Origin: a virus
Direction: 5' to 3' (one strand)
Virus record (IMG/VR): IMGVR_UViG_3300048797_000370
Coordinates: 1 to 45,391 of that record
Length of the DNA: 45,391 nucleotides
Made by a program: the position numbers and the translations under genes. This document shows, piece by piece, positions 2,206 through 16,474 of this stretch. Positions within the stretch are counted from its first letter, which is position 1, and each line of letters starts with the position of its first letter. The notes under the pieces were generated by a model. It did not search any database. It worked only from the letters and a program-made list of their open reading frames with translations, and had not been told where the DNA came from.

Positions 2206-3120
2206 TTACCTTCTGTCGGGAAACTGGCCGTTATTTATGAAGCGGTCAAAGGTGTCCTCTTCAGGCTCACCATCGTCATGTTGTGGCTGCCGCCATTCAG
2301 CTTCTGGCATTAGCAGCAGGGAGAGTGTGTAGTCGTAGTTGCCAGCAACCTTGGTCATCTCGGTCAATTCCACGTAGGAAGGTTCACGAGGAAACCAAAC
2401 ATTGGCCCGAATATTTTGATTTTCCACGGTTCCAGAATTGTGATCGCTGTGGGCAATGGACTCCGGTGGCACTTCGATGGTGTTTTTTCTGGTCGCGAAA
2501 AATGCCCCTGACTTGAATGCTGCGTCGTTGGACTTGGCCCACAGCATGAAATCATCACGACTAGCGACCAGAACAGCACGGTTATCGGCGATTTCAATCC
2601 AGTGCAACGCGACCGCAGTCAGCGACACACCATAACGATCGGCACAGTGGCCCAGAAGATCGAAGCTGATGGCGTGCCCATCGACCTGTTTGCGGAAATC
2701 GTCCAAGGGCATCAATAGGGTCGATGCAAACTGATCGGCATCGGTTTCGATGCCATTTTTGTCGCCGCCGCCGGTCTCGATATCATCGTTACCGCATTGA
2801 AATTCTGCTTGCTGATCCCGGTGCAAAAGGTAATGACCAAACTCATGTGCAATGGTGAATCGCTTGCGCCCTGGCGAAGTTACCGCGCTGTTGTAGAGAA
2901 TTCGCCATTTCGAGCGTGCCTTATTTGCGGCGAGCATGCCATCAAAGCCTTCGAGAGCATGACCCTCGACCTTTTCGACGGGTGAGTCAGGGAAACATTG
3001 ATGGGAATATTCAAGTGCGACTTCGTCCGCCTTGACGGGGAACCGGGCGTCACCCAAGACGATCCTCAGCACATTTGAGATGCGATTGGCCTGTGCTTTA
3101 GGCTGCTTGGTTTCGGTCAT
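2206..3120 (-). CDS. ImmA/IrrE family zinc metallopeptidase
   Basis: A 304-residue protein with the zinc-protease motif HEFGH at residues 92-96 and a downstream acidic helix (ETDADQFASTLLMP, about 125-138) that supplies the third metal ligand. In characterised members (ImmA of ICEBs1, IrrE/PprI of Deinococcus) the enzyme cleaves a partner XRE repressor and so derepresses genes. The start overlaps the stop codon of the XRE gene as ATGA, so the two are coupled and presumably act as a pair. The C-terminal third (from about residue 170) is a sensor-like region without a motif I can name. The likely target is the adjacent repressor, controlling the divergent pair at 3640-5839. Confidence 0.9.
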   Translation of the reverse strand: MTETKQPKAQANRISNVLRIVLGDARFPVKADEVALEYSHQCFPDSPVEKVEGHALEGFDGMLAANKARSKWRILYNSAVTSPGRKRFTIAHEFGHYLLHRDQQAEFQCGNDDIETGGGDKNGIETDADQFASTLLMPLDDFRKQVDGHAISFDLLGHCADRYGVSLTAVALHWIEIADNRAVLVASRDDFMLWAKSNDAAFKSGAFFATRKNTIEVPPESIAHSDHNSGTVENQNIRANVWFPREPSYVELTEMTKVAGNYDYTLSLLLMPEAEWRQPQHDDGEPEEDTFDRFINNGQFPDRR

Positions 3121-3437
3121 TCATGTTCCCATCCCTCGAGAATCTTGCGAATCTGCTTCTTGGTCCCTTCGGGCATGTTCTGGTACTTGCGAAAAAACGC
3201 CTGATCAAGGACTTCCCCGTCGGGCGTAGAGGCCGAGGTGCTCAGTAAAAATTCAGTGGTCACATCGAGAGCCGCGGCGATACGAGCCACTTTTTCTGCC
3301 GAAGGGTTGGGAGTATCCTTATTTTCCAATTCCCACATATAGCTCTTGCTGGAGTCGGTCAGTTCAGCAAGTCGTTCAAGACTGAGCTTCTTTTGCTTGC
3401 GCAGAGCGCGGATCTTGTCACCTAGGGGCGATGGCAC
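3117..3437 (-). CDS. XRE-family helix-turn-helix repressor
   Basis: A 106-residue protein. Residues 6-65 form a classic Cro/CI-type HTH (IRALRKQKKLSLERLAELT, then SSKSYMWELENKDTPNPS, then IAAALDVTTEFLL). The C-terminal 35 residues are helical and may be the ImmA/IrrE cleavage or dimerisation region. It starts at GTG, with AGGAG six bases upstream. The neighbouring inverted repeats ACCGAACG and CGTTCGGT lie between this gene and the divergent one, which fits autoregulation and control of the rightward promoter. It could be the phage repressor or a dedicated regulator of the 3640-5839 cargo; no CI-like protein is seen elsewhere. Confidence 0.9.
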   Translation of the reverse strand: MPSPLGDKIRALRKQKKLSLERLAELTDSSKSYMWELENKDTPNPSAEKVARIAAALDVTTEFLLSTSASTPDGEVLDQAFFRKYQNMPEGTKKQIRKILEGWEHE

Positions 3438-3484
3438 TTATTACTCCTCATCTATTCCAAAAACTTTGCAAATAATACCACTCT

Positions 3485-3558
3485 ACCGAACGATTATGTA
3501 TTTGCTTGACAAACCCATATCTGGTCTGAAATAATCCTAAACGTTCGGTTTAGCGAAC
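3485..3558. promoter_or_regulatory. Shared operator region between XRE gene and divergent pair
   Basis: ACCGAACG at 3485-3492 is the inverted repeat of CGTTCGGT at 3542-3549. A second palindrome, GTTCG-GTTTAG-CGAAC, occupies 3543-3558, right where transcription from the rightward promoter should begin. On the other strand, the left half-site falls just upstream of a TATTAT box that could serve the XRE gene. This layout would let one repressor control both directions. Confidence 0.55.
3506..3535 (+). promoter_or_regulatory. Sigma70-like promoter for the 3640-5839 pair
   Basis: A perfect TTGACA (3506-3511), an 18-base spacer and AATAAT (3530-3535, five of six matches). The predicted start near 3542 is covered by the operator palindrome. 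Confidence 0.6.
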
Positions 3559-3639
3559 AAATAAGGCCTGTACACCTAAACAATGACAAGTAGGAGAACC
3601 GGGCTGCACACAAGCGTTTAAACATCAATAAGGAAAAAA

Positions 3640-4869
3640 ATGAACGATTCAGAAAATTTGTCAAAGTTGCTCTGCCACCTGCCACCATCTGTCTTTCGTG
3701 AATTCATCGTCAATGAATTCGGCGTGGCAATCCCGGCGCTGGAGCCGGAGCAGGGAAAGCGTGAGCAGCGTGCCGCCATGGAGGCGGTTTTGGCGGCTAT
3801 TCCCGTCGGCGATCGCCAGAAGATCGAGGAAGTCGTTGAGCGCATCGTGCTGCTGTCAGACGGCGCAGGTCAAGACGTGATCGAGGGTTTTAAGGATGGT
3901 ATCTTTGGCGATGAAGGAAAGGCAGCATTCGAGGTGATTCACAATCAGTACGAGCGCGCTCTGTGGCTCTACAACAATGAGCCAAAGTTGTTCAAGGAAG
4001 CTGTGGATGCACGCCAGGCTGACGTTTTCCGTCAAAGTACGTCCTGCTTTTCAGGCTTCATTGCACCCGTGAAATTGGCTGTGAAAAGTGACATGGTTTC
4101 CCGGGCTGAATTTCACAAACGAGTTGCTGCGCACCTTGGCTGTGCAGCTGAGTCAGTTGCAATTCAGATATTCAAACGCCTGCGTCCGGATACCGACACG
4201 GGCGAAGACGTTGATCTGTATCAGATCAGCGTCCACCATAACCGCCCGCCCGAGCTAATCGACTGTGTACAGGCCAGTGAATTGGTGCCACAGGAGGTCA
4301 TTCGGGCAGTGTCATCGCACATCACTTACGAGCCTGCCAATGGTCACCTGGAGGTGCTGTCCAAGGATACGGACGGACGCGAAAAGCTGGCCAGCATCAT
4401 GGCTGAGTGTTTGTTGCAGTCCCCCATCACTGGCGAAAAAATTCCAATCAAACAGTACGACTACCAAAGTCTGGCGACTTTGCGCAACCTTGATCTGACT
4501 GGCGAGAACGTGGCATCTGTCAAGGTCATCGAACTGGGGTACTCGGTTGCCGGCAACCGGTCGCTGCTGGTGAAGATTTGGAGCAACGATGCCGACAACA
4601 TCTACTCAGCTGCTCGATCACTCACGAACCCATTGTTTGATTTTAGCAACCACCGCCTGAATTTCGCGAAGCTGTCCATTCGCCTGAAGAAGGTCGGGAT
4701 TGAGCGGGCACGCACGATCAGCGTCATCCTGCGCGAGGACAACAAATGCAACATCAAGACCAAGCGCGAGAAGGATCGCTCGCTGTGTGACCGACTTCTT
4801 GCCAAATGGCATTTGGTGAAGGTGATCGGCGATGCCGGCGCGCCCGCTGTCCACGCAATCGCTGCTTGA
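3640..4869 (+). CDS. Protein of unknown function, first gene of ImmA-linked pair
   Basis: I do not recognise this 409-residue protein. It has no signal peptide or membrane segment. The N-terminal 110 residues are largely helical and acidic (MEAVLAAI, QKIEEVVERIVLLSDG). The middle (about 150-260) mixes strands and helices, with HHNRPPELIDC. The C-terminal part is basic and strand-rich (NHRLNFAKLSIRLKK, then TISVILREDNKCNIKTKREKDRSL). An AAGGA ribosome site precedes the ATG. It is driven by the promoter at 3506 and overlaps the next gene by 38 bases, so the two products are probably made together and may act as a complex. It is under likely control of the XRE/ImmA pair. A defence, immunity or lysogenic-conversion role is inference only. 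Confidence 0.8.
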   Translation: MNDSENLSKLLCHLPPSVFREFIVNEFGVAIPALEPEQGKREQRAAMEAVLAAIPVGDRQKIEEVVERIVLLSDGAGQDVIEGFKDGIFGDEGKAAFEVIHNQYERALWLYNNEPKLFKEAVDARQADVFRQSTSCFSGFIAPVKLAVKSDMVSRAEFHKRVAAHLGCAAESVAIQIFKRLRPDTDTGEDVDLYQISVHHNRPPELIDCVQASELVPQEVIRAVSSHITYEPANGHLEVLSKDTDGREKLASIMAECLLQSPITGEKIPIKQYDYQSLATLRNLDLTGENVASVKVIELGYSVAGNRSLLVKIWSNDADNIYSAARSLTNPLFDFSNHRLNFAKLSIRLKKVGIERARTISVILREDNKCNIKTKREKDRSLCDRLLAKWHLVKVIGDAGAPAVHAIAA

Positions 4870-5839
4870 GCTGCTCGATCTGTTCGAGCAATCGGACCAG
4901 TCGATCAGTGATGCCGATGGACAGAGACTGTGCGGGTTTCCGGGGTGGGACCTCGCCAGGCTGCAATCATTGAGGCATCCGGATCGGCTGGACTGGCTGG
5001 TCTGCAATGGATATGCTGGTCGCTACCCGGCATCCCGCGGCGACGAACATGTGCCGGTTGAACTGGAAGAGGATGATGTTCCAGGGCGGTACGCATACCG
5101 GTGCCCCGAGACCTTTCGCAAGAAATTTGTTTCAGCGTCCGAGGTGGCCGTCTACTCAGTATCAACCACGAAAATTCTGGGGCAGATTGCCACGCTTCTG
5201 GAAACTCCACTGGCGCACCGGCGAGGCATCGAATCACCGGCGATAGACAGTGTGCTCTGGAATCTCGGAAAGACCCGCATTGGCTCTTCTCATGTGGATG
5301 TTTGGTTTGTCCGTGGTTTCGCGCGGTCCGCTGATGCGGTGTTTCGGTACTTTCATTCGGCAACCCTGGTGGAGCAGGGGCTGATTCTGAGCTCCGGGCA
5401 ACCCCTGCCTGAGTTTGTGCGGCCGCCGCGAAACTATCGATTTGCCACCATGCGCCAGGTACTGGTCGACTATGTGCCAAAGCCCTGCATTGACATGACA
5501 CTGCTTCATCGCATTCTGACGACACCCGCTGATGGCACTTTGCCGTCGGTGTTAGCCGTGTTTTTCGATGAAATCAACAAGGTGCTCACGATCCGCACGA
5601 AGAAGGACCCGTGGCATATCAAAGGAGCGCGCCAAGCTGCAGCGGTGAACTACATGTACCAGCAAGCCTGCAAAAACCGCTGGCTGCTTGATGCCGGCGA
5701 AATTCTTGCCGCTGCCTACCCCAAGGAGCAGCAGGTCGGCAAGAGCCGCACGATGCAGAGCCTGTTCAGTGGCAACAAGGAGTGGAAGGACTACATAGCC
5801 AATCCAGAGAAAGGAACGTACAGTTTTTGCATGGACTGA
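4832..5839 (+). CDS. Protein of unknown function, second gene of ImmA-linked pair
   Basis: A 335-residue soluble protein that I cannot assign to a family. Seen: a helical N-terminus (QSLLELLDLFEQSDQSISD), a central segment with SVLWNLGKTRIGSSHVDVWFVRGFARSADAVFRYF (given in two parts: residues about 136-153, then 154-171), and a basic C-terminal part (INKVLTIRTKKDPWHIKGAR; later QACKNRWLLDAGEIL). DVWFVRGF followed by a patch of aromatic and basic residues may be a catalytic or binding core, but no known motif fits. It begins inside the upstream gene (38-base overlap), with GGTGA before its ATG, and ends 25 bases before a terminator. The pair forms a closed transcription unit. Confidence 0.8.
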   Translation: MPARPLSTQSLLELLDLFEQSDQSISDADGQRLCGFPGWDLARLQSLRHPDRLDWLVCNGYAGRYPASRGDEHVPVELEEDDVPGRYAYRCPETFRKKFVSASEVAVYSVSTTKILGQIATLLETPLAHRRGIESPAIDSVLWNLGKTRIGSSHVDVWFVRGFARSADAVFRYFHSATLVEQGLILSSGQPLPEFVRPPRNYRFATMRQVLVDYVPKPCIDMTLLHRILTTPADGTLPSVLAVFFDEINKVLTIRTKKDPWHIKGARQAAAVNYMYQQACKNRWLLDAGEILAAAYPKEQQVGKSRTMQSLFSGNKEWKDYIANPEKGTYSFCMD

Positions 5840-5863
5840 ACAAGCGACAGCTATTTGCACCAC

Positions 5864-5891
5864 GCACAACCGCCTTAGGGCGGTTTTGTGC
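5864..5891 (+). terminator. Intrinsic terminator after the unknown pair
   Basis: AACCGCC (5868-5874), a TTAG loop and GGCGGTT (5879-5885) form a GC-rich stem followed by TTGTG. The outer bases GCAC/GTGC extend the stem past a two-base bulge. Confidence 0.75.
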
Positions 5892-5925
5892 TTTCTGGAG
5901 CCCTAAATCACCTGTAAATGTCGCG

Positions 5926-5969
5926 CCCGTACATGAGCCCGTACATGGCGGTGCTTGTCACCCGTACAT
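5926..5969. repeat. Three CCCGTACAT direct repeats upstream of the early operon
   Basis: CCCGTACAT occurs at 5926-5934, 5938-5946 and 5961-5969, at spacings of 12 and 23 bases (about one and two helical turns). A weaker version, CCTGTAAAT, lies at 5911-5919. The array sits between the terminator and the first early gene and is placed as an operator for the early promoter. The repressor that binds it is unknown; no good -35/-10 pair stands out. Confidence 0.6.
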
Positions 5970-6021
5970 CTCGAAACCCAAACTTCATCACGTTTTCGCA
6001 ATCACATGAAAGGACAAAAAC

Positions 6022-6246
6022 GTGACTATCAAACACCTCAATCAACGCCAATTGGCCGACCGTTGGGATCTGAGCGAGGCATCGCTCGAACGCTGGCGGA
6101 CCGAAGGTATCGGACCGGTATTTCTGAAACTGCAAGGGCGCGTGCTGTACCGCGTCGAGGACGTGGAAGCGTTCGAGAACGACAGCCTGCGCAAAAGCAC
6201 ATCCGAACGCGCAACCGCAGTGCTTGCCGTGGGAGGTGCAGCATGA
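6022..6246 (+). CDS. Small HTH (excisionase/MerR-like) DNA-binding protein
   Basis: This 74-residue protein consists mainly of one winged HTH of the HTH_17/AlpA type: LNQRQLADRWDLSEASLERW, then a wing GIGPVFLKLQGRVLYRVEDVEAF. Such proteins act as excisionases or early transcription regulators in phages. The start is GTG at 6022, preceded by AAAGGA. It is the first gene of a chain in which each member overlaps or abuts the next; its stop overlaps the next start as ATGA. The CCCGTACAT repeats directly upstream are possible autoregulatory sites. Confidence 0.8.
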   Translation: MTIKHLNQRQLADRWDLSEASLERWRTEGIGPVFLKLQGRVLYRVEDVEAFENDSLRKSTSERATAVLAVGGAA

Positions 6247-6722
6247 GCACCTTAGCCCAAGAGAGTGTGCTTGCCATCCCTGTAGGCAACCTGGCCGAGC
6301 AGTCCAGCCAGTCGTTGTTCGAGCTCAAAAGCAATGCTGCCGCTTTGCAAACCCAAGCCAAGGCTATCAGCGATCACATCGATCGCGCGGTGGAATTGAA
6401 GTTCGCCGGTCGTGCTCACGACCTCCGTCTGGGCGCAGGCAAGGATACCGGCATCGTGCATTTTGAGGACGGAACGGTGCACATCACAGCCGACCTTCCC
6501 AAAAAGGTGGAATGGGATCAAGCAAAACTTGCCGACATCACCCGCCGCATCGCGGCCAACGGCGAAGACCCGGCGCAATACGTCGAAATCAGCTACCGCG
6601 TGTCCGAGACCAAGTTTGGGGCCTGGCCAGAAACATTGAAGTCGGCCTTTGTACCTGCACGCACCCTTAAAACCGGCAAACCGAGCTTTCGCCTGGCGTT
6701 GGTGGAAGGAGACCAAGCATGA
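6243..6722 (+). CDS. Conserved phage early protein of unknown function
   Basis: A 159-residue acidic protein without a known catalytic motif. The N-terminal half is helical (SLFELKSNAAALQTQAKAIS), followed by a strand-rich part (GIVHFEDGTVHITADLPKKV). The C-terminus ends with a basic stretch (PARTLKTGKPSFRLALVEG). I know similar proteins as conserved neighbours of Sak4-type ATPases in phage recombination modules, function unassigned. The ATG at 6243 is preferred over the upstream in-frame start at 5955, because that longer version would read through the HTH gene in another frame. Coupled to both neighbours by ATGA. Confidence 0.75.
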   Translation: MSTLAQESVLAIPVGNLAEQSSQSLFELKSNAAALQTQAKAISDHIDRAVELKFAGRAHDLRLGAGKDTGIVHFEDGTVHITADLPKKVEWDQAKLADITRRIAANGEDPAQYVEISYRVSETKFGAWPETLKSAFVPARTLKTGKPSFRLALVEGDQA

Positions 6723-7618
6723 GTCTCAAAATTTATACCGCCGATCAACGATTGACCGAACAGCGCGGTGTCAAAGGCGTGCTCGTTGGTAAGAGTGGTT
6801 TGGGCAAAACATCCCAACTCTGGACGCTCAACCCAATTGCTTCCCTGTTCTTTGATCTTGAGGCTGGCGACCTTGCGGTCGAGGGGTGGTTGGGTGACAC
6901 CATCCGACCGCGCACATGGCAGGAATGCCGTGACTTCGCCGTCTTCATCGGCGGACCCAACCCGGCATTGCGTGACGATCAGCCCTATAGCCAGGCGCAC
7001 TTCGATGCAGTCTGCGCGAGCTTTGGTGACCCATCAGTGATGGATAAGTATGAAACCATATTTGTCGATTCAATCACAGTGGCGGGCCGCCTGTGCATGC
7101 AATGGTGCAAAGGTCAACCCCAAGCCTTTTCAGAAAAAACTGGCAAACCCGACAGCCGAGGTGCCTATGGTTTGATGGGTTCAGAAATGATTGGCTGGCT
7201 GACGCATTTGCAGCATACCCGGCGCAAAAACGTCTGGTTCGTCGGCATTTTGGACGAGAAGCTTGACGACTTCAATCGGCGTGTTTTTTCTCTACAGATT
7301 GATGGCTCGAAAACTGGGCTCGAGTTGCCCGGGATTGTTGACATCGTCATCACTCTGGCCGACATCAAAGGCGACGATGGACAAAGCTACCGCGCTTTTG
7401 TCTGTCAAACGCTCAATGCGTGGGGTTATCCCGCCAAAGATCGATCGGGTCGTCTTGACCTGATTGAAGAACCGCATCTGGGTCGCCTGATGCAAAAGGT
7501 CACCGGCCCGGCCAAACCGGCACCCGAGCGGCTCAATTTCTCACGACCCACACCCAGTGTCAGTCCAACTGACACCCCTGTTTCCATGTCTGTAACCCAA
7601 CCCACCCAGGAGTCCTGA
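6719..7618 (+). CDS. Sak4-like RecA-fold ATPase (AAA_24)
   Basis: A 299-residue phage nucleotide-binding protein. Walker A is GKSGLGKT at residues 24-31; a Walker B-like segment, YETIFVDSIT, lies near 113-122. The core is a compact RecA fold, and the last 40 residues are a Pro/Thr/Ser-rich tail (SVSPTDTPVSMSVTQPTQ). Proteins of this type (Sak4) promote single-strand annealing during phage recombination and usually sit beside an ssDNA-binding protein, as here. The start overlaps the upstream stop codon as ATGA. Confidence 0.85.
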   Translation: MSLKIYTADQRLTEQRGVKGVLVGKSGLGKTSQLWTLNPIASLFFDLEAGDLAVEGWLGDTIRPRTWQECRDFAVFIGGPNPALRDDQPYSQAHFDAVCASFGDPSVMDKYETIFVDSITVAGRLCMQWCKGQPQAFSEKTGKPDSRGAYGLMGSEMIGWLTHLQHTRRKNVWFVGILDEKLDDFNRRVFSLQIDGSKTGLELPGIVDIVITLADIKGDDGQSYRAFVCQTLNAWGYPAKDRSGRLDLIEEPHLGRLMQKVTGPAKPAPERLNFSRPTPSVSPTDTPVSMSVTQPTQES

Positions 7619-7620
7619 TC

Positions 7621-8220
7621 ATGACCTATTTCGATTTCAACTCGGCCGCTGAACAATCTTCATTCGACCCTATTCCAAAAGGCACCAACGTCCGAGTGCA
7701 CATGACTATCCGCCCGGGTGGTTTCGATGATGTGGCCCAGGGTTGGACCGGTGGCTACGCCACCCGTAACGACAAGAGTGGTTCGGTCTACCTGAACTGT
7801 GAGTTCGTGGTGACCGAGGGCGAATTCGCTCGGCGCAAGATGTGGTCGCTGATCGGCTTGCACAGCCCCAAAGGCCCGGAGTGGGCCAACATGGGCCGCA
7901 CCTTTGTCAAGGCGATCCTCAACTCGGCGCGCGGGATTCATCCCGGTGATAACAGCCCGACCGCGCAGAACGCCCGACGCATCAGCGGCTTCACCGATCT
8001 GGATGGCATCGAATTTCTGGGCAAGGTTGACTGGGAGAAAGACCAGAACGGCCAGGACAAGAGCGTCATCAAGTCGGCCATCACCCCCGACCACAAGGAC
8101 TATGCCGCCCTGATGGGGGCTGCTCGCCCCGCCTCACCTCCTGCAGCCAGCACGCCCAACGCCTACGCCCAGGCCAGCGGTCGCGCACCGGTGCCGGGTC
8201 GTCCGAGCTGGGCGCAGTAA
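7621..8220 (+). CDS. Putative phage ssDNA-binding protein
   Basis: A 199-residue protein with an OB-like strand pattern (NVRVHMTIRPGGFDD, GSVYLNCEFVVTEGEFARRKMW) and a disordered Pro/Ala-rich tail ending in SWAQ. The layout resembles phage proteins of the DUF669 kind that act as single-stranded DNA-binding proteins. The position directly after the Sak4-like ATPase, two bases after its stop codon, supports this. Without a search, the family assignment remains tentative. Confidence 0.6.
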   Translation: MTYFDFNSAAEQSSFDPIPKGTNVRVHMTIRPGGFDDVAQGWTGGYATRNDKSGSVYLNCEFVVTEGEFARRKMWSLIGLHSPKGPEWANMGRTFVKAILNSARGIHPGDNSPTAQNARRISGFTDLDGIEFLGKVDWEKDQNGQDKSVIKSAITPDHKDYAALMGAARPASPPAASTPNAYAQASGRAPVPGRPSWAQ

Positions 8221-8233
8221 AGGGGCCGCCACC

Positions 8234-9907
8234 ATGATGCTACGTCCCCGCCAAGCCCTGTTGGTCGAGCGCACCTTAGCGGCGCTGCACCAGCACGGCA
8301 ACACCCTGGCTGTCGCACCAACCGGTTCAGGCAAGACCATCATGCTGTCGGCGGTGGCCGGCAGCCTGCTGGCCGAGCCTGATGCCAAGGCCTGCATCCT
8401 TGCGCACCGCACTGAACTGACGGGTCAGAACCGTGCCAAGTTCGCACGGGTCAACCCAGGTCTGAGTACCTCGGTATTTGATGCCCAGGAGAAATCATGG
8501 GAAGGAAATGCCACCTTCGCCATGGTGCAGACCCTGTCGCGCCCATCGCACCTGGATCAAATCCCCACGCTTGATTTACTGGTCATCGATGAGGCGCATC
8601 ACGCGTCATCACCGAGCTACCGGGCCGTCATCGAGAAGGTGCAAAGCCGCAATCCCAAGGCGGCCATCTGCGGTTTGACTGCTACCCCGAACCGGGGAGA
8701 CGGCCAGGCTCTGCGCGACATCTTCTCCAACCTGTCGGACCAAATCACCTTAGGGGAGATGATCGCCAGCGGTCACTTGGTTTCGCCCAGGACCTTTGTG
8801 ATCGATGTCGGCGCCCGGGAAGCGCTGCAAAACGTTCGGCGCACGGCCACAGACTTCGACATGGACGAGGTCGCCTCCATCCTGAACAAGACGCTGGTCA
8901 CAGATGCCGTCATCAAGAACTGGAAGGACAAGGCCTTCGGTCGCAAGACCATCGTCTTCTGCTCGACCGTGGCCCATGCTCAAAACGTGTGTGACGGATT
9001 CTGTGAAGCTGGCGTGCGCGCAGTCCTGATTCACGGCGAGTTGTCGGACACCGAACGCAAGGCGCGGTTGACCAGCTACGAGTCCGGCGATGCGCAAGTG
9101 GTTGTAAATGTGGCCGTCCTGACTGAGGGCTACGACTACACGCCGAGCGCCTGTGTGATCCTGCTTCGCCCCAGTTCCTACAAGTCCACCTTCATCCAGA
9201 TGGTGGGGCGCGGCCTGCGCATCGTCGATCCGCAGGAGTTCCCCGGTGTCATCAAGACCGACTGCATCGTGCTGGACTTCGGCACGGCCAGCCTGATGCA
9301 CGGCGCGCTGGAGGAGGATGTCAATCTTGACGGCCATCTGCATGATGGTGAGGCGCCCACCAAAGACTGCCCCCAATGCGGAGCGATCGTTCCGCTGGCT
9401 GTGATGGAGTGCCCGTTTTGCGATCACACCTGGAAGCACCAACCCGAGCAGGACGGCGTTTTAAGCGATTTCGTCATGAGCGAAATTGATTTACTCAAGC
9501 GCTCCAACTTTCGCTGGTGTGATTTGTTTGGCTGCGACGATGCCTTGATGGCCACGGGTTTCAATGCCTGGGGTGGTGTGTTCTTCCTCAATGGACGCTG
9601 GCATGCGGTTGGCGGCGGCCGGGATTTGCCGTCCCGGCTGCTTGCCGTCGGTGACCGCATGGTCTGCATGGCACAAGCTGACGACTGGCTCAACGAGCGT
9701 GAATCTGCGGACTCTGCGCATAAGACGTGCCGCTGGCTCAATGAGCCGCCGACATCGAAGCAACTCCAGTACCTGCCGCAAGCGATGCGCGCCGATTTCG
9801 GTATGACCCGCTATCAAGCCTCGGCCTTGCTCTCCTTCCAGTTCAACAAGTCGCAAATCCAGCGACTGGTGGTGGCTGCCAACGACGCTTATCGGGAGGC
9901 TGCGTGA
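8234..9907 (+). CDS. DEAD/DEAH-box superfamily 2 helicase with zinc ribbon
   Basis: A 557-residue SF2 helicase: Walker A TGSGKT at residues 30-35, DEAH at 119-122, SAT-like motif III as GLTATPNRGDG, and the second RecA domain with MVGRGLRI near residue 322. A CPQC/CPFC zinc ribbon (Cys379, 382, 393, 396) follows, then a 150-residue C-terminal extension of unknown function. It is expected to unwind or remodel DNA during phage replication or recombination. It lies in the early operon, and its stop overlaps the next start (GTGA). Confidence 0.9.
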   Translation: MMLRPRQALLVERTLAALHQHGNTLAVAPTGSGKTIMLSAVAGSLLAEPDAKACILAHRTELTGQNRAKFARVNPGLSTSVFDAQEKSWEGNATFAMVQTLSRPSHLDQIPTLDLLVIDEAHHASSPSYRAVIEKVQSRNPKAAICGLTATPNRGDGQALRDIFSNLSDQITLGEMIASGHLVSPRTFVIDVGAREALQNVRRTATDFDMDEVASILNKTLVTDAVIKNWKDKAFGRKTIVFCSTVAHAQNVCDGFCEAGVRAVLIHGELSDTERKARLTSYESGDAQVVVNVAVLTEGYDYTPSACVILLRPSSYKSTFIQMVGRGLRIVDPQEFPGVIKTDCIVLDFGTASLMHGALEEDVNLDGHLHDGEAPTKDCPQCGAIVPLAVMECPFCDHTWKHQPEQDGVLSDFVMSEIDLLKRSNFRWCDLFGCDDALMATGFNAWGGVFFLNGRWHAVGGGRDLPSRLLAVGDRMVCMAQADDWLNERESADSAHKTCRWLNEPPTSKQLQYLPQAMRADFGMTRYQASALLSFQFNKSQIQRLVVAANDAYREAA

Positions 9908-10326
9908 AATGCGCGGTCTGCTCACGCGAAGCCAGGCACCTGGGCTGGTTCAACCCGCGGCTCAAGCGCAACGATCCCGCGCGCTACTCGGACCGATGGG
10001 TGTTCTGCTCCAAGGCGTGCCAGAACGCGTTCTCTCAAATCATGAACAAAACGGAGGGTCAAATGGTCGATCCGAGTGAGATGGAAATTGCGGCAATGCA
10101 TTCCTGCCTGCTTCCGCTTGGTGAATTCGTGGGCGCGATCGGCATGACGCGGGCGCTGGCCGACTACAGCCGCGAGGAGATTTTGACCTTGGTCGAGGTG
10201 GTGGTCACGGCCTATCAAAACCACATGCTCGCCGAGCACGAGCGCGAAGCGGCCAAAGACAGGGCCTACTTTGAAAGACTCTTTGCCGAGCAGGAACGCA
10301 CTTCATCAATGGGGAATGCAAAGTGA
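9904..10326 (+). CDS. Small zinc-finger phage protein (DUF6511-like)
   Basis: A 140-residue protein with an N-terminal cysteine pattern, CAVC near residue 3 and CSKAC near residue 36, which probably binds one zinc. The remainder is helical and acidic (SREEILTLVEVVVTAYQNHM, then EHEREAAKDRAYFERLFAEQ). It resembles DUF6511 proteins, which often sit between a helicase and a PD-(D/E)XK nuclease in phage early operons. Function unknown. It begins at GTG overlapping the helicase stop, and its stop overlaps the nuclease start, so it is translationally coupled on both sides. Confidence 0.7.
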   Translation: MKCAVCSREARHLGWFNPRLKRNDPARYSDRWVFCSKACQNAFSQIMNKTEGQMVDPSEMEIAAMHSCLLPLGEFVGAIGMTRALADYSREEILTLVEVVVTAYQNHMLAEHEREAAKDRAYFERLFAEQERTSSMGNAK

Positions 10327-11081
10327 CGCTGGACTTTAATCACCGGCCCACGCTTGAAGATCAGATTTGCGGCCTGATTGATGTCGCTCTAAGTTGCGAG
10401 CGTGATGGTCAGACGCCGCGTGACTACCTCGGTGCATCCCGCTTGGGCGTGACCTGTGAGCGTGCGCTGCAGTACGAGTACACCCACACGCCAGTCGATG
10501 CCGGACGGGACTTTTCCGGTCGTTTGCTTCGTATTTTCGAAGTTGGCCACACCCTGGAGGACCTAGCGGTGCGCTGGCTGCGTCTGGCTGGGTTCGACCT
10601 GTATACGCGCAAGACCAAAGGTGGCCAGTTCGGGTTCTCGGTGGCGGGTGGACGGATACGGGGCCACGTTGACGGCATATTGGATGGCGGCCCTGTCGAT
10701 ATTGGTCTGAGATACCCAGCGATCTGGGAGTTCAAGACCATGAACGACAAGTCCTGGCGTGACACCGTTAAACAGGGTGTGGCCAAGTCAAAACCGGTCT
10801 ATGCGGCACAGGTCGCGGTCTACCAAGCCTACATGGAGGCCAGCATCCCAGGTGTCTCAGACAACCCGGCGCTGTTTACGGCCATCAATAAAAACACCCA
10901 GGAAATCTGGTTTGAGTTGTTGCCCTTTGATGGTGGATTGGCGCAGCGCATGTCTGACCGTGCGGTCAAAGTTATTTCGGCCACCGAAGCTGGTGAACTA
11001 TTGCCGCGCCACACCACAACACCCACGCACCAGGAGTGCAAATTCTGCTCATGGCAAGACCGGTGCTGGAGCGCTGCATGA
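10323..11081 (+). CDS. PD-(D/E)XK family nuclease (RecB/Cas4-like)
   Basis: A 252-residue nuclease. The core GHVDGILDG (near residue 117) followed by WEFKTMND (near 136) fits the D...ExK active site, and QVAVYQAYM supplies the conserved QxxxY helix. The C-terminal CKFCSWQDRC has cysteines like those that hold an iron-sulfur cluster in Cas4/AddB-type nucleases, although only three are visible here. It probably resects DNA ends for the Sak4-like annealing system. The start is GTG overlapping the upstream stop, and its stop overlaps the primase start as ATGA. Confidence 0.85.
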   Translation: MTLDFNHRPTLEDQICGLIDVALSCERDGQTPRDYLGASRLGVTCERALQYEYTHTPVDAGRDFSGRLLRIFEVGHTLEDLAVRWLRLAGFDLYTRKTKGGQFGFSVAGGRIRGHVDGILDGGPVDIGLRYPAIWEFKTMNDKSWRDTVKQGVAKSKPVYAAQVAVYQAYMEASIPGVSDNPALFTAINKNTQEIWFELLPFDGGLAQRMSDRAVKVISATEAGELLPRHTTTPTHQECKFCSWQDRCWSAA

Positions 11082-13255
11082 CGGTTGAAATTTTGAATTG
11101 GTTGGATTTCAATGATGCGCCACAGCAGCGTGCCGATTTGAGCGAGGAAATCCATGCCTTGCGCACTGGTCTGATGGATCGGTTGGAAGCAGTCTTGCGC
11201 TACCTCTTTCCCGCCGGTCAAGTCAAAGGGAACAAATTCTATGTGGGCGATGTTGACGGCACACCGGGCAAAAGCCTCGTGGTGGAACTCGAGGGGCCAC
11301 GCCGAGGTTTATGGAAGGACTTTTCCAACGACGATGGTGGCGATCTGATCGACATCTGGGCCATGTCGCGCGGTCTATCGGTGAAACATGATTTTGTGCA
11401 AGTGCTCCAGGAGGTCAGCCAGTGGCTTGGATTTGCGCCACCTATCACACGACCAATTCGTCGTGATGCACGCAGCGCACCCACCGATGACCTTGGTCCA
11501 TACACTGCAAAGTGGGATTACCTGTCCACTCAGGGCGAACTGATCGCCTGTGTGTATCGCTACGACCCAACCACGGGTAAGGAGTTCCGGCCATGGGATG
11601 TTTCCAGCCGGATGTGGCGCGCGCCGGATTCAAGGCCTTTGTACAACTTGCCGTCAGTTGCTGCATCTCGCCAAGTCGTCCTGGTTGAAGGTGAAAAATG
11701 TGCCGATGCACTGATTGGCATCGGCATCACTGCCACAACGGCTATGAACGGTGCAAAAGCACCTATCGATAAAACCGACTGGAGTCCACTCAAAAGCAAA
11801 GACGTTGTCATTTGGCCGGATCGGGATTGTCCTGGCATGGATTACGCCCAAAACGCCGCCCGGGCCAGTGTGCTGGCAGGCTGTGCATCTGTGTGCATTT
11901 TGGTGCCGCCCGATGACAAACCGGAAAAGTGGGATGCCGCCGACGGTGTTGAGGAGGGCTTTGACTGCTTAACTTTCATTGCCGAAGGCCAGCGCCAGGC
12001 CATCAAGGTAGCAGCGCCTGTTTTACCGAGCTTCTCACTGGGCCAACTGCTCGACGACGACTCCCCAATGCCGCCGGACATCATCGCTCCAAAGGTGCTG
12101 ACACCGGGGAGTTTGACGGTCTTTGGCGGTGCGCCCAAAGTCGGCAAAAGCGACTTCCTTCTGGCTTGGCTCGCGCACATGGCCGCAGGGATGACCTTCC
12201 TGGGCATGCATCCACCGCGCCCCTTGCGCATTTTTTACCTGCAAGCGGAGGTGCAGTACTACTACCTGCGCGAACGTGTCAAAGCCATCAAGCTGCCATC
12301 ACACCGCATCAAAGATGCGCGCCAAAACCTGTTCTGCACACCGCAGGTTCACCTAATTCTCAATGAAAGTGGTGTGGCTCAGGCGATTGCGGCCATCAAA
12401 GATGCCTTCCCCCAGGAACCCCCAGACATCATCGCCATTGACCCGCTGCGCAATGTGTTCGACGGCGGCGAAGGTTCTTCTGGAGAAAACGACAACGCGG
12501 CAATGCTTTTCTTTTTGCAGCAAAGAATTGAACGCATCCTCATAGCAGTCAATCCTGACGGGGGTGTGATTTTGGTGCACCACACCAAGAAGATGGGTAA
12601 GAAACAGTTCGAAGAGGATCCGTTTCAGGCATTCGCCGGCGCTGGCAGTCTGCGCGGCTTTTACTCATGTGGGCTGGTACTGCATCGCCCGGACGAGTCA
12701 AGCAGCATACGGCAACTGATTGTTGAGCTACGCAACGGTCCAGCCATCCCCACAAAGCATGTTGACAAGATCAATGGTGAGTGGCGTGAAGTGGACTCCA
12801 ACCGACGCCTGGTCTTGCAAGATCACGGCGCAAAACTCGATGCCGAGCGCAGGCGCAAGCACGACACCATCTTGCAAATCCTGTTCGACGAGGCTGGGCG
12901 TGGGCGTTGCTACACGGCCAATCAATTCGCCGATAGCTTTGAAGGCAAGGCAGGCCTGGGTGCCAGCCGAACCATCAACGAGCGCTTGGCCGTGTTGGCC
13001 AGCAAAGGCTACGTCAAATTCTGCAAAGACAACGCGCCCTACGGTTTGCCCTCCGTTGGGCGCAGCAAGTTTGGCTACCTGTGCGTCGAGGACATGCTGT
13101 TGACGCGCCCCATTGGCCCGCCCGATGAGGTGACCGGAGAGGTTCATACCGACTCACTGAGGATCTACCCGACCCACTACAAGTGCCCCCAAACCGGTGC
13201 TCTGCTGCCCGTTGAAAACCCCGATGTCTGGATATATCAAGAGGAAATATTATGA
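11078..13255 (+). CDS. Toprim primase fused to RepA-type helicase ATPase
   Basis: A 725-residue replication protein. After an N-terminal region that may bind DNA (residues 1-150), a Toprim domain carries VEGEKCADAL (Glu204-Glu206) and WPDRDCPG (Asp248, Asp250). A RepA/AAA_25-type ATPase follows with Walker A GGAPKVGKS at 350-358 and an IIAIDPLRN Walker B. The C-terminal 150 residues contain a winged-helix-like segment (FADSFEGKAGLGASRTINER). It would prime and unwind DNA at the phage origin. I chose the ATG at 11078, which overlaps the nuclease stop, over 11036. The repeat array directly downstream is a likely target. Confidence 0.9.
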   Translation: MTVEILNWLDFNDAPQQRADLSEEIHALRTGLMDRLEAVLRYLFPAGQVKGNKFYVGDVDGTPGKSLVVELEGPRRGLWKDFSNDDGGDLIDIWAMSRGLSVKHDFVQVLQEVSQWLGFAPPITRPIRRDARSAPTDDLGPYTAKWDYLSTQGELIACVYRYDPTTGKEFRPWDVSSRMWRAPDSRPLYNLPSVAASRQVVLVEGEKCADALIGIGITATTAMNGAKAPIDKTDWSPLKSKDVVIWPDRDCPGMDYAQNAARASVLAGCASVCILVPPDDKPEKWDAADGVEEGFDCLTFIAEGQRQAIKVAAPVLPSFSLGQLLDDDSPMPPDIIAPKVLTPGSLTVFGGAPKVGKSDFLLAWLAHMAAGMTFLGMHPPRPLRIFYLQAEVQYYYLRERVKAIKLPSHRIKDARQNLFCTPQVHLILNESGVAQAIAAIKDAFPQEPPDIIAIDPLRNVFDGGEGSSGENDNAAMLFFLQQRIERILIAVNPDGGVILVHHTKKMGKKQFEEDPFQAFAGAGSLRGFYSCGLVLHRPDESSSIRQLIVELRNGPAIPTKHVDKINGEWREVDSNRRLVLQDHGAKLDAERRRKHDTILQILFDEAGRGRCYTANQFADSFEGKAGLGASRTINERLAVLASKGYVKFCKDNAPYGLPSVGRSKFGYLCVEDMLLTRPIGPPDEVTGEVHTDSLRIYPTHYKCPQTGALLPVENPDVWIYQEEIL

Positions 13256-15193: not shown

Positions 15194-16474
15194 ATGACCG
15201 TATCCTGGCTGGCCAACAAAATTGAGCAGTGGCCAACCGCCAAACTCTTACCCTACGCACGCAATTCGCGCACGCACTCGGAGGAGCAAGTGGCTCAGGT
15301 CGCCGCATCGATCGTTGAGTTTGGATTTACAAATCCGATTCTTTGCGGCAGCGACGGCATCATCGTAGCTGGACATTGCAGGCTCGCCGCTTCACATAAG
15401 CTCGGCCTTGAATCCGTTCCGGTGGTCGTGCTCGACCATCTGACACCCACCCAACGCCGAGCCCTGGTCATTGCGGACAATCGCACCGCCGAATTGGCAG
15501 GCTGGGACGACGCGCTGCTGCGGGTCGAACTCGATGCGCTGCGCGACGACGATTTTGATTTGTCGCTCACAGGGTTTGATGCTGACGCATTGGCTGATCT
15601 GTTCGAGGGCGAGGAAGGCGACACGGGCCAAACGGGTGACGATGACGTACCCGAGTCGCAAGAGGCTGCGATCTCGCGCCTTGGCGACGTGTGGCTGCTC
15701 GGTGGCCACCGTGTGCTGTGTGGCGATGCCACCGTGGCCGAGAGTTATGAACAACTGCTCCAAGGTCAGAAGGTGGACATGACGGTCACCGACCCGCCGT
15801 ACAACGTCAACTATGCCAACAGCGCCAAGGACAAGATGCGTGGCAAAGACCGCGCCATCCTCAACGACAACTTGGGCGACGGCTTCTACGACTTCTTGCT
15901 GGCCGCACTCACGCCCATCATGGCCAACTGCACAGGCGCTGTTTACGTGGCCATGTCGTCCAGCGAACTAGACACCCTGCAGTCCGCGTTTCGCGAGGCA
16001 GGTGGCAAGTGGTCAACCTTCATCATCTGGGCCAAGAACACCTTCACCATGGGGCGCTCGGACTACCAGCGCCAGTACGAACCGATTCTGTACGGCTGGC
16101 CCGAGGGTGGCACACACCACTGGTGTGGCGACCGAGACCAGAGCGATGTCTGGCAGATCAAAAAGCCCCACAAGAACGATCTGCACCCGACAATGAAACC
16201 AGTCGAGTTGGTCGAGCGTGCCATTCGCAACTCCAGCAAGCCGGGTGACGTCGTGCTTGACCCCTTCGGTGGATCCGGTACGACGCTGATCGCTGCAGAA
16301 AAGTCAGGTCGCACGGCGCGCCTGATGGAACTCGATCCCAAGTATGTTGACGTTATTGTCCGGCGCTGGCAGGACTGGACCGGCAAACTTGCCAATCGCG
16401 AGAGCGATGGCATCGGCTTTAACGATATGGCCAGTGTTGGTGCCCTCGACCAGAAAATTGAAGATAAGGCGTGA
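15194..16474 (+). CDS. ParB-like domain fused to DNA methyltransferase
   Basis: A 426-residue fusion. Residues 1-110 form a ParB/Sulfiredoxin-like domain (NPILCGSDGIIVAGHCRLAA). Residues 165-410 form an N6-adenine or N4-cytosine methyltransferase with DPPYNV at 200-205 and the SAM-binding DPFGGSGTT at 356-364; this order of motifs marks the beta class. Phage enzymes like this protect DNA from host restriction and often sit beside the terminase. An AGAGGT ribosome site precedes the ATG. No restriction nuclease is nearby, so it is probably an orphan. The target sequence cannot be told. Confidence 0.9.
   Translation: MTVSWLANKIEQWPTAKLLPYARNSRTHSEEQVAQVAASIVEFGFTNPILCGSDGIIVAGHCRLAASHKLGLESVPVVVLDHLTPTQRRALVIADNRTAELAGWDDALLRVELDALRDDDFDLSLTGFDADALADLFEGEEGDTGQTGDDDVPESQEAAISRLGDVWLLGGHRVLCGDATVAESYEQLLQGQKVDMTVTDPPYNVNYANSAKDKMRGKDRAILNDNLGDGFYDFLLAALTPIMANCTGAVYVAMSSSELDTLQSAFREAGGKWSTFIIWAKNTFTMGRSDYQRQYEPILYGWPEGGTHHWCGDRDQSDVWQIKKPHKNDLHPTMKPVELVERAIRNSSKPGDVVLDPFGGSGTTLIAAEKSGRTARLMELDPKYVDVIVRRWQDWTGKLANRESDGIGFNDMASVGALDQKIEDKA

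What the first reader, a model, noticed from the sequence alone, without database searches (positions are those of the whole stretch)
2206..5891. Four-gene XRE/ImmA-controlled cassette with two unassigned proteins
Seen: an XRE repressor gene and an ImmA/IrrE protease gene, coupled by ATGA, diverge from two overlapping genes (409 and 335 residues) that fit no family I know. The divergent region holds inverted repeats and a strong promoter, and the rightward pair ends at its own terminator. Known: ImmA/IrrE enzymes cleave XRE repressors in response to DNA damage or other signals. Inference: the pair is an inducible effector unit (defence, superinfection exclusion or induction control) carried by the prophage. 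This is my leading candidate for an undescribed system.
Basis: partly seen in the sequence, partly recalled or inferred. Interest (0 to 1): 0.65.

Follow-up and report, generated by a model that had tools for sequence, protein, structure and literature searches.

The report
Two-protein relay switching on a prophage
In this prophage a DNA-damage-sensing repressor and protease pair appears to control two previously undescribed proteins that bind a set of matching DNA repeats and most likely turn on the virus's early genes; related phages keep the two proteins and the repeats but swap the damage sensor, and a bacterial ubiquitin-like operon carries the same pair and repeats.

Summary
The anatomy is confirmed. 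The leftward pair is CapH-CapP, a known DNA-damage sensor pair (PADLOC 104 and 241 bits). The rightward genes (A, 409 aa; B, 335 aa) have no described family except phrog_37634 (unknown). They are not optional defence cargo: A-B is core to a large proteobacterial prophage family, between the repressor and the early operon. B ends in an OmpR/PhoB-type winged helix; A resembles RdgC/CENP-N. Between B and the early operon lie three direct repeats (CCCGTACAT at 5926, 5938, 5961). All 77 distinct gaps examined carry such a triple at 12/23 or 12/22 spacing, before a -10-like hexamer at fixed distance. The repeat sequence varies between phages in concert, and B residue 313 tracks it perfectly (Lys with C, never with G/A; 7/7 and 68/68; five concerted changes on the best tree). 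The sensor in front is swapped (CapHP, one-chain XRE-ImmA, S24/LexA-like, WYL, probably host LexA) while A-B and array stay. Best reading: a two-protein relay that switches on the early operon after damage; three Bub-type ubiquitin-like operons also carry it. Repeat binding by B is well supported; activation rather than repression is inferred. Nothing was tested at the bench.

The parts
2206..3120 (-). CapP-like ImmA/IrrE (M78) metalloprotease, HEFGH motif
   Evidence: capP 3.9e-72, 240.6 bits; Peptidase_M78
3117..3437 (-). CapH-like XRE repressor, GTG start, ATGA overlap with capP
   Evidence: capH 2.2e-30; XRE HTH Pfam hits
3485..3492 (.). Putative CapH half site ACCGAACG, between the capH and A promoters
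   Evidence: Conserved in most of 32 aligned divergent regions; inverted-repeat arm; CapH binding is inference
3506..3535 (+). Promoter PA of A-B: TTGACA, 18 bp, AATAAT
   Evidence: 11 of 12 consensus; TTGACA in 71/72 relatives
3543..3558 (.). Putative CapH operator GTTCGGTTTAGCGAAC just downstream of the PA -10
   Evidence: kept in 69/72 relatives
3640..4869 (+). Protein A (409 aa): helical N-terminal part plus RdgC/CENP-N/TBP-like domain; conserved partner of B
   Evidence: Model pLDDT 85; Foldseek RdgC 2.9e-5 then CENP-N/Chl4; top 16 structural rows all CENP-N/L or RdgC, Z up to 8.3
4832..5839 (+). Protein B (335 aa), C-terminal OmpR/PhoB-type winged helix
   Evidence: Model pLDDT 89; residues about 241-335 match CovR, VanR, YycF, ToxR, OmpR-type domains, Z up to 7.4
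5768..5770 (+). Codon of B Ser313, the residue that tracks the repeat sequence
   Evidence: MCC 1.00 over 75 phages, next best column 0.75; 5 concerted changes on the tree
5868..5885 (+). Terminator-like stem-loop plus T-rich tail closing A-B
   Evidence: conserved in relatives
5925..5934 (+). Repeat 1, GCCCGTACAT
5937..5946 (+). Repeat 2, GCCCGTACAT
5960..5969 (+). Repeat 3, ACCCGTACAT, between the -35-like and -10-like hexamers
5955..5984 (+). Putative early promoter PE: -35-like TTGTCA (5955-5960), 18 bp, -10-like CAAACT (5979-5984)
   Evidence: A at position 2 and T at position 6 of the -10 hexamer in 77/77 relatives at fixed distance from repeat 3; weak consensus otherwise
6022..6246 (+). 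First gene of the early operon: excisionase/AlpA-like HTH protein (hth74)
   Evidence: phrog_66 excisionase and transcriptional regulator 4.2e-6
6243..13255 (+). Rest of the putative controlled early region: phrog_2480, Sak4-like annealing protein, DNA helicase, Cas4-type exonuclease, primase/helicase

Best explanation
A and B form a two-protein, DNA-damage-induced transcription relay of a temperate phage. In the lysogen CapH represses the strong promoter PA. When CapP is activated (by ssDNA in the published CapHP system) it cleaves CapH and A-B is made. B binds the three direct repeats upstream of the early operon with its OmpR-type winged helix, helped by the RdgC/CENP-N-like protein A, and activates the weak promoter PE, turning on excision, recombination and replication genes. 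Shown by sequence: gene identities, near-obligate A-B pairing, the array, its fixed geometry, covariation of B313 with the repeat, sensor swapping. Inferred: that A and B bind together, that the effect is activation, and that CapH binds the palindromes.
For: Array: in 77/77 distinct B-hth74 gaps (window plus relatives) the best 9-mer triple lies at 12/23 spacing (12/22 in one), identity score 21-27 of 27 against shuffle means near 15; unique in the 45-kb window. The repeat sequence differs between phages but the copies change together. B313: Lys in 7/7 phages with C at repeat position 4, never Lys in 68/68 with G/A; best of all columns of A, B, hth74, x and CapH; five concerted changes, three on supported branches. 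Distant arrays lean the same way (post hoc): Arg/Lys/His with C in 8, small residue or Asn with A/G in 8, three exceptions, Fisher p 0.003, 0.028 after removing near copies. B's C-terminal fold is OmpR/PhoB-type, a family whose known DNA sites are all direct repeats (PMC4832192). PA is near consensus and overlaps palindromes, whereas PE is weak, with A2 and T6 of the -10 fixed in 77/77 at constant distance from repeat 3: a repressed strong promoter feeding a helper-needing one. The sensor in front of A-B varies among damage-type regulators: CapHP, one-chain XRE-ImmA (L039), S24/LexA-like (L078, L199), WYL (L191), and consensus LexA boxes at -84 in L041/L042, which lack a local repressor (0 of 66 CapHP phages have one). 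A-B lie in one frame in L217, L219 and L051. Three Bub-type operons have A-B and repeats but no hth74. CapP is activated on ssDNA and cleaves CapH (PMC13373217).
Against: Activation is not shown; repeat 3 lies between the -35-like and -10-like hexamers, where binding could also block polymerase. Only 3-5 independent B313 changes, too few for a sign test alone, and three distant exceptions (L196, L211, L214). Seven of the 75 compared rows carry Lys313, so the association rests on few lineages. The Bub array has a slightly different geometry and only three loci. A's structural match is at the edge of noise (Z 8.3), though the top rows agree. B residues 1-240 have no assigned fold. In the Bub loci no damage sensor was recognised next to A-B.
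Confidence: 0.66

Rival explanations
1. A-B is a repressor pair (Cro-like or a second immunity repressor): B bound at the array, one copy inside the promoter, shuts the early operon off, with A perhaps sensing damage as CapK does for CapS.
For: Repeat 3 sits between -35-like and -10-like hexamers. Known Cap controllers of Bub operons are repressors with a damage sensor (PMC13373217), and three A-B pairs precede Bub-type operons with no other sensor recognised beside them.
Against: A-B itself sits behind damage-released repressors or a probable LexA box, so it would be made on induction, when early genes are needed. PE lacks a good -35, which suits an activator.
Confidence: 0.2
2. The array is a replication origin or partition site and A-B its initiator or segregation complex.
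For: Iteron-like arrays in front of replication genes; A resembles RdgC and kinetochore CENP-N; two relatives are on plasmid records.
Against: The same A-B plus repeats precede ubiquitin-like operons with no replication genes next to them; a -10-like hexamer stands at constant distance in 77/77.
Confidence: 0.07
3. The repeats are sites of the excisionase-like hth74 protein and have nothing to do with A-B.
For: hth74 starts about 50 bases after repeat 3; excisionases often bind direct repeats (own knowledge).
Against: No hth74 column is among the 15 best associations with the repeat sequence, whereas B313 is perfect; Bub loci have the repeats but no hth74.
Confidence: 0.04
4. Defence or superinfection-exclusion effector pair under CapHP control.
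For: CapHP normally controls immune operons (PMC13373217); the pair precedes an immune-type operon in three loci.
Against: No defence-model hit for A or B; kept as core with the early operon; DNA-binding architecture.
Confidence: 0.03

Closest known systems
CapH-CapP (controllers of CBASS, Bub and other immune operons)
   Same: XRE repressor plus ImmA/IrrE protease; the sensor half of this locus is a member by profile score
   Different: Here it stands before a phage early-gene relay, not an immune operon
SXT SetR-SetCD relay (own knowledge)
   Same: Damage-released repressor controls two overlapping genes whose products jointly activate the element's genes
   Different: SetCD is FlhDC-like; A and B are unlike it in predicted fold
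Pyocin PrtR-PrtN relay (own knowledge)
   Same: Repressor controls an activator that binds sites upstream of phage-like genes
   Different: One activator protein of a different family; RecA-dependent repressor
OmpR/PhoB winged-helix regulators
   Same: B C-terminal fold; direct-repeat sites; promoter-proximal placement
   Different: No receiver domain recognised; no sequence-profile match; 12/23 rather than about 10-11 bp spacing
RdgC and CENP-N/CENP-L fold group
   Same: Predicted fold of A, with a helical part before it as in CENP-N
   Different: No sequence-family match; paired with a transcription-factor-like partner
CapK-CapS
   Same: Two adjacent genes upstream of Bub-type operons, the second with a winged helix
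   Different: A has no GHKL kinase match; B has an OmpR-type rather than MarR/ArsR-type winged helix

Membership tests
CapH-CapP | XRE-type CapH plus M78-type CapP encoded together | tested here: met
   PADLOC capH 103.8 bits, capP 240.6 bits; ATGA overlap
CapH-CapP | CapP activated by ssDNA and cleaving CapH | not testable with these tools
   Published for the family (PMC13373217)
CapH-CapP | Adjacent to an immune operon (usual, not strictly defining) | tested here: not met
   Adjacent genes are A-B and then phage early genes
OmpR/PhoB winged-helix regulators | Winged-helix fold of that type | tested here: met
   Rows 1-16 by Z all of this type, Z 4.8-7.4 over about 85-90 residues
OmpR/PhoB winged-helix regulators | Detectable sequence similarity to the family | tested here: not met
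   No Pfam match; B profile against E. coli PhoB E 0.3
OmpR/PhoB winged-helix regulators | Direct-repeat DNA sites | tested here: met
   Array with B313 covariation; binding itself not assayed
RdgC | RdgC fold | tested here: inconclusive
   Foldseek 2.9e-5, Z 7.2 over 118 residues; phage RdgC also hit
RdgC | RdgC sequence family | tested here: not met
   No Pfam or NCBIfam match
CENP-N/CENP-L | Helical N-terminal domain plus CENP-L/N-type fold | tested here: inconclusive
   Z up to 8.3; alignments spanning about residues 57-274
CapK-CapS | GHKL kinase domain in the first protein | tested here: not met
   No Pfam match in A or its Bub homologue; predicted fold RdgC/CENP-N-like
CapK-CapS | STAS plus MarR/ArsR-type winged helix in the second protein | tested here: inconclusive
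   No STAS match; winged helix is OmpR-type; CapS sequence not compared directly
Bub operon (for L050, L052, L053) | Ubiquitin-like protein, E1 and JAB-type genes together | tested here: met
   Multi_ubiq 1.6e-34, ThiF 9.1e-35, Prok-JAB 0.0054 below its cut-off in L050; same genes in L052, L053; an E2 was not demonstrated
Known anti-phage effectors | Match of A or B to a PADLOC model | tested here: not met
   No hits up to E 1
SetCD / PrtN relays | Sequence or fold relation to SetC, SetD or PrtN | not tested
   Comparison is of circuit logic only, from own knowledge

The most novel reading that the evidence does not exclude
A is a prokaryotic member of the RdgC/CENP-N fold group that, with a winged-helix partner of evolvable specificity, forms a new kind of two-protein activator on 12-bp-spaced repeats. 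This output module is portable: it is plugged behind at least four types of damage sensor in prophages and is also used in front of ubiquitin-like immune operons.
Probability: 0.35. Interest if true: 0.75.

Novelty: new variant of a known kind. Interest (0 to 1): 0.62.

Why it matters
It would give the missing middle step of induction for a large group of proteobacterial prophages, and a natural series of protein-DNA specificity changes (Ser to Lys with G/A to C) that can be tested directly. It also shows phages and an immune-type operon sharing the same output module, and it warns that a CapHP pair next to unknown genes need not mark a defence system.

Tried and rejected
Profile libraries gave nothing for A or B beyond phrog_37634. 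PDB sequence searches with single proteins and with profiles gave only chance-level hits. No relatives in the annotated phage collection; two plasmid records only. An early thought that A-B is CapK-CapS, prompted by the Bub neighbours, was dropped because A shows no GHKL domain and B's winged helix is of another type. A direct profile alignment of B to PhoB failed (E 0.3), so the placing of residue 313 in the recognition-helix region rests on the predicted model and sequence context, not on that alignment. Foldseek alone gave no significant match for B; the winged helix came from the second-look aligner. A LexA-box search across all upstream regions found strict boxes in L041 and L042, plus one in L226 at -177 that was not followed up. 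The register of repeats in distant loci was set by eye after the near-family rule was seen, so that test is post hoc. Literature searches found no description of A or B.

Full report
What is there. The four genes are as described. The leftward pair is CapH-CapP by profile (capH 103.8 bits, capP 240.6 bits). The rightward proteins, called A (409 aa) and B (335 aa) here, have no Pfam, NCBIfam or PADLOC match; A matches phrog_37634 of unknown function. The window is a 45,391-base IMG/VR virus record.

Where the pair occurs. Scans of viral contigs and of one genome per species and tblastn of the window's genes on the fetched loci show a constant order: serine recombinase, DUF2924, a 71-aa protein, CapP, CapH, A, B, an excisionase-like gene (hth74), an unknown gene (x), a Sak4-like gene, an unknown gene, helicase. 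Nearly all loci with A have B beside it, in this order. Profile searches in Pseudomonadota and reading of the regions add about 40 distant loci, mostly in serine-recombinase prophages, again A followed by B. In L217, L219 and the Agarilytica plasmid L051 the two lie in one open reading frame (the B part of L217 and L219 is weak, E 0.0003-0.002).

Exceptions that teach. Three loci outside the phage order, a Candidatus Tenderia plasmid (L050) and two gammaproteobacterial MAG contigs (L052, L053), have A-B directly before a Multi_ubiq, JAB-like and ThiF operon. That is the make-up of Bub operons, which are often associated with CapH-CapP or CapW and sometimes CapK-CapS (PMC13373217).

Structures. 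A was predicted at pLDDT 85 from 28 sequences. Foldseek puts RdgC first (2.9e-5) and CENP-N/Chl4 next; the second-look aligner fills ranks 1-16 with CENP-N, CENP-L/Iml3 and RdgC, best Z 8.3. Chl4/Iml3 (CENP-N/L) are known to resemble RdgC and TBP (PMC4080450); phage RdgC proteins and viral TBPs appear in the viral library. The Z values are at a level where chance cannot be excluded, but the agreement of the top rows is notable. B was predicted at pLDDT 89 from 47 sequences; residues about 241-335 match OmpR/PhoB-type DNA-binding domains (Z up to 7.4). Residues 1-240 have no assignment.

The array. The 182-base gap between B and hth74 holds a terminator and three direct repeats, GCCCGTACAT, GCCCGTACAT and ACCCGTACAT, starting at 5925, 5937 and 5960. 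CCCGTACAT occurs nowhere else in the window. The sequence itself varies: CCCGTACAT in most, CCCCCACAT, CCCATACAT, CCCCCATAT, CCAGTACAT, CCCCTACAT or CAGTACAAA in others, with the copies in one phage changing together. Distant phages have arrays of 11-12 base period after B with other sequences, and the Bub loci have TTCACACC- or TTCACCCC-type repeats.

Who reads the array. Among all columns of A, B, hth74, x and CapH, one is perfectly associated with whether position 4 of the repeat is C: B313, Lys in 7 of 7, Ser (once Ala) in 68 of 68; the next best column scores MCC 0.75. On a tree built without that column both traits change five times, always together, three on well supported branches, including sister pairs L049/L143 and L055/L007. 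The sign test alone cannot reach 0.05 with so few pairs. In distant arrays Arg, Lys or His goes with C and small residues or Asn with A or G, with three exceptions (register set by eye). B is also the least conserved of the compared proteins (mean pairwise identity 0.55, against 0.75 for A, 0.81 for hth74 and 0.84 for CapH).

Two promoters. PA, between CapH and A, has TTGACA in 71 of 72 relatives and a palindrome just downstream of the -10 in 69 of 72, the look of a strong repressed promoter. The putative early promoter PE has a poor -35 and a -10-like hexamer whose A2 and T6 are fixed in 77 of 77 at constant distance from repeat 3. OmpR/PhoB proteins bind direct repeats as tandem dimers (PMC4832192), and in a model of the PhoB initiation complex the PhoB sites overlap the -35 region (PMC3348028). 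This favours activation but does not prove it.

Swapped sensors. In place of CapHP some relatives have a one-chain XRE-ImmA protein (L039), a LexA-like S24 repressor (L078, L199) or a WYL protein (L191) in front of A-B. L041 and L042 have no repressor gene there but a consensus LexA box at the same place, -84 from A, with different inner bases. CapP-like proteins lie by A-B in 16 of the distant loci at E below 1e-38. These are regulator types tied to DNA damage in published systems (PMC13373217 for CapHP and CapW; LexA from general knowledge). If A-B is made on damage, its job in a prophage is more likely to start the early operon than to stop it.

Best account. CapH-CapP senses damage and releases PA; A-B is made; B, with A, binds the array and turns on PE and the early region, whose genes include an excisionase-like protein, Sak4, helicase, Cas4-type exonuclease and primase/helicase. 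That A-B is a regulator and B reads the repeats is well supported (about 0.85 in my judgement); activation as the sign of the effect is inference, which brings the whole account to about 0.66. Rivals are listed with their tests.

Known or new. The sensor pair is known. The relay logic resembles SetR-SetCD and PrtR-PrtN (own knowledge). The A-B family, its array, the residue-313 relation and its presence before Bub-type operons were not found in the literature searched. I therefore call it a new variant of a known kind.

Noticed in passing
L010:1169-2383 and the same place in many relatives: An accessory gene of about 404 aa on the minus strand lies between the 71-aa gene and CapP; absent from the window; only a sub-threshold DUF6880 match and no PADLOC match.
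   Followed up: partly
L009:4856-6055: A 399-aa ORF that looks like an IS transposase (by eye) lies between B and hth74, in the gap that carries the array in relatives.
   Followed up: no
L041 and L042, -84 from the A start: LexA boxes CTGTTTTTACACACAG and CTGTTATTTCATACAG in phages without a local repressor gene.
   Followed up: yes
window 15194-16474: Fusion of a ParB-like nuclease and a DNA methyltransferase (phrog_498, 7e-164).
   Followed up: no
L188 (G009:C1:376000-394000): A second, diverged A-B locus in an Accumulibacter genome that also carries a phage-type copy; TCAGTAA-type repeats follow B.
   Followed up: partly
L227: A shortened A-like gene (289 aa) without a recognised B, next to CapP/CapH-like genes and followed by S24 and DinB/UmuC-like cluster members.
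   Followed up: no
L226, -177 from the A start: A further CTGT-N8-ACAG box in a locus that also has CapHP-like genes.
   Followed up: no
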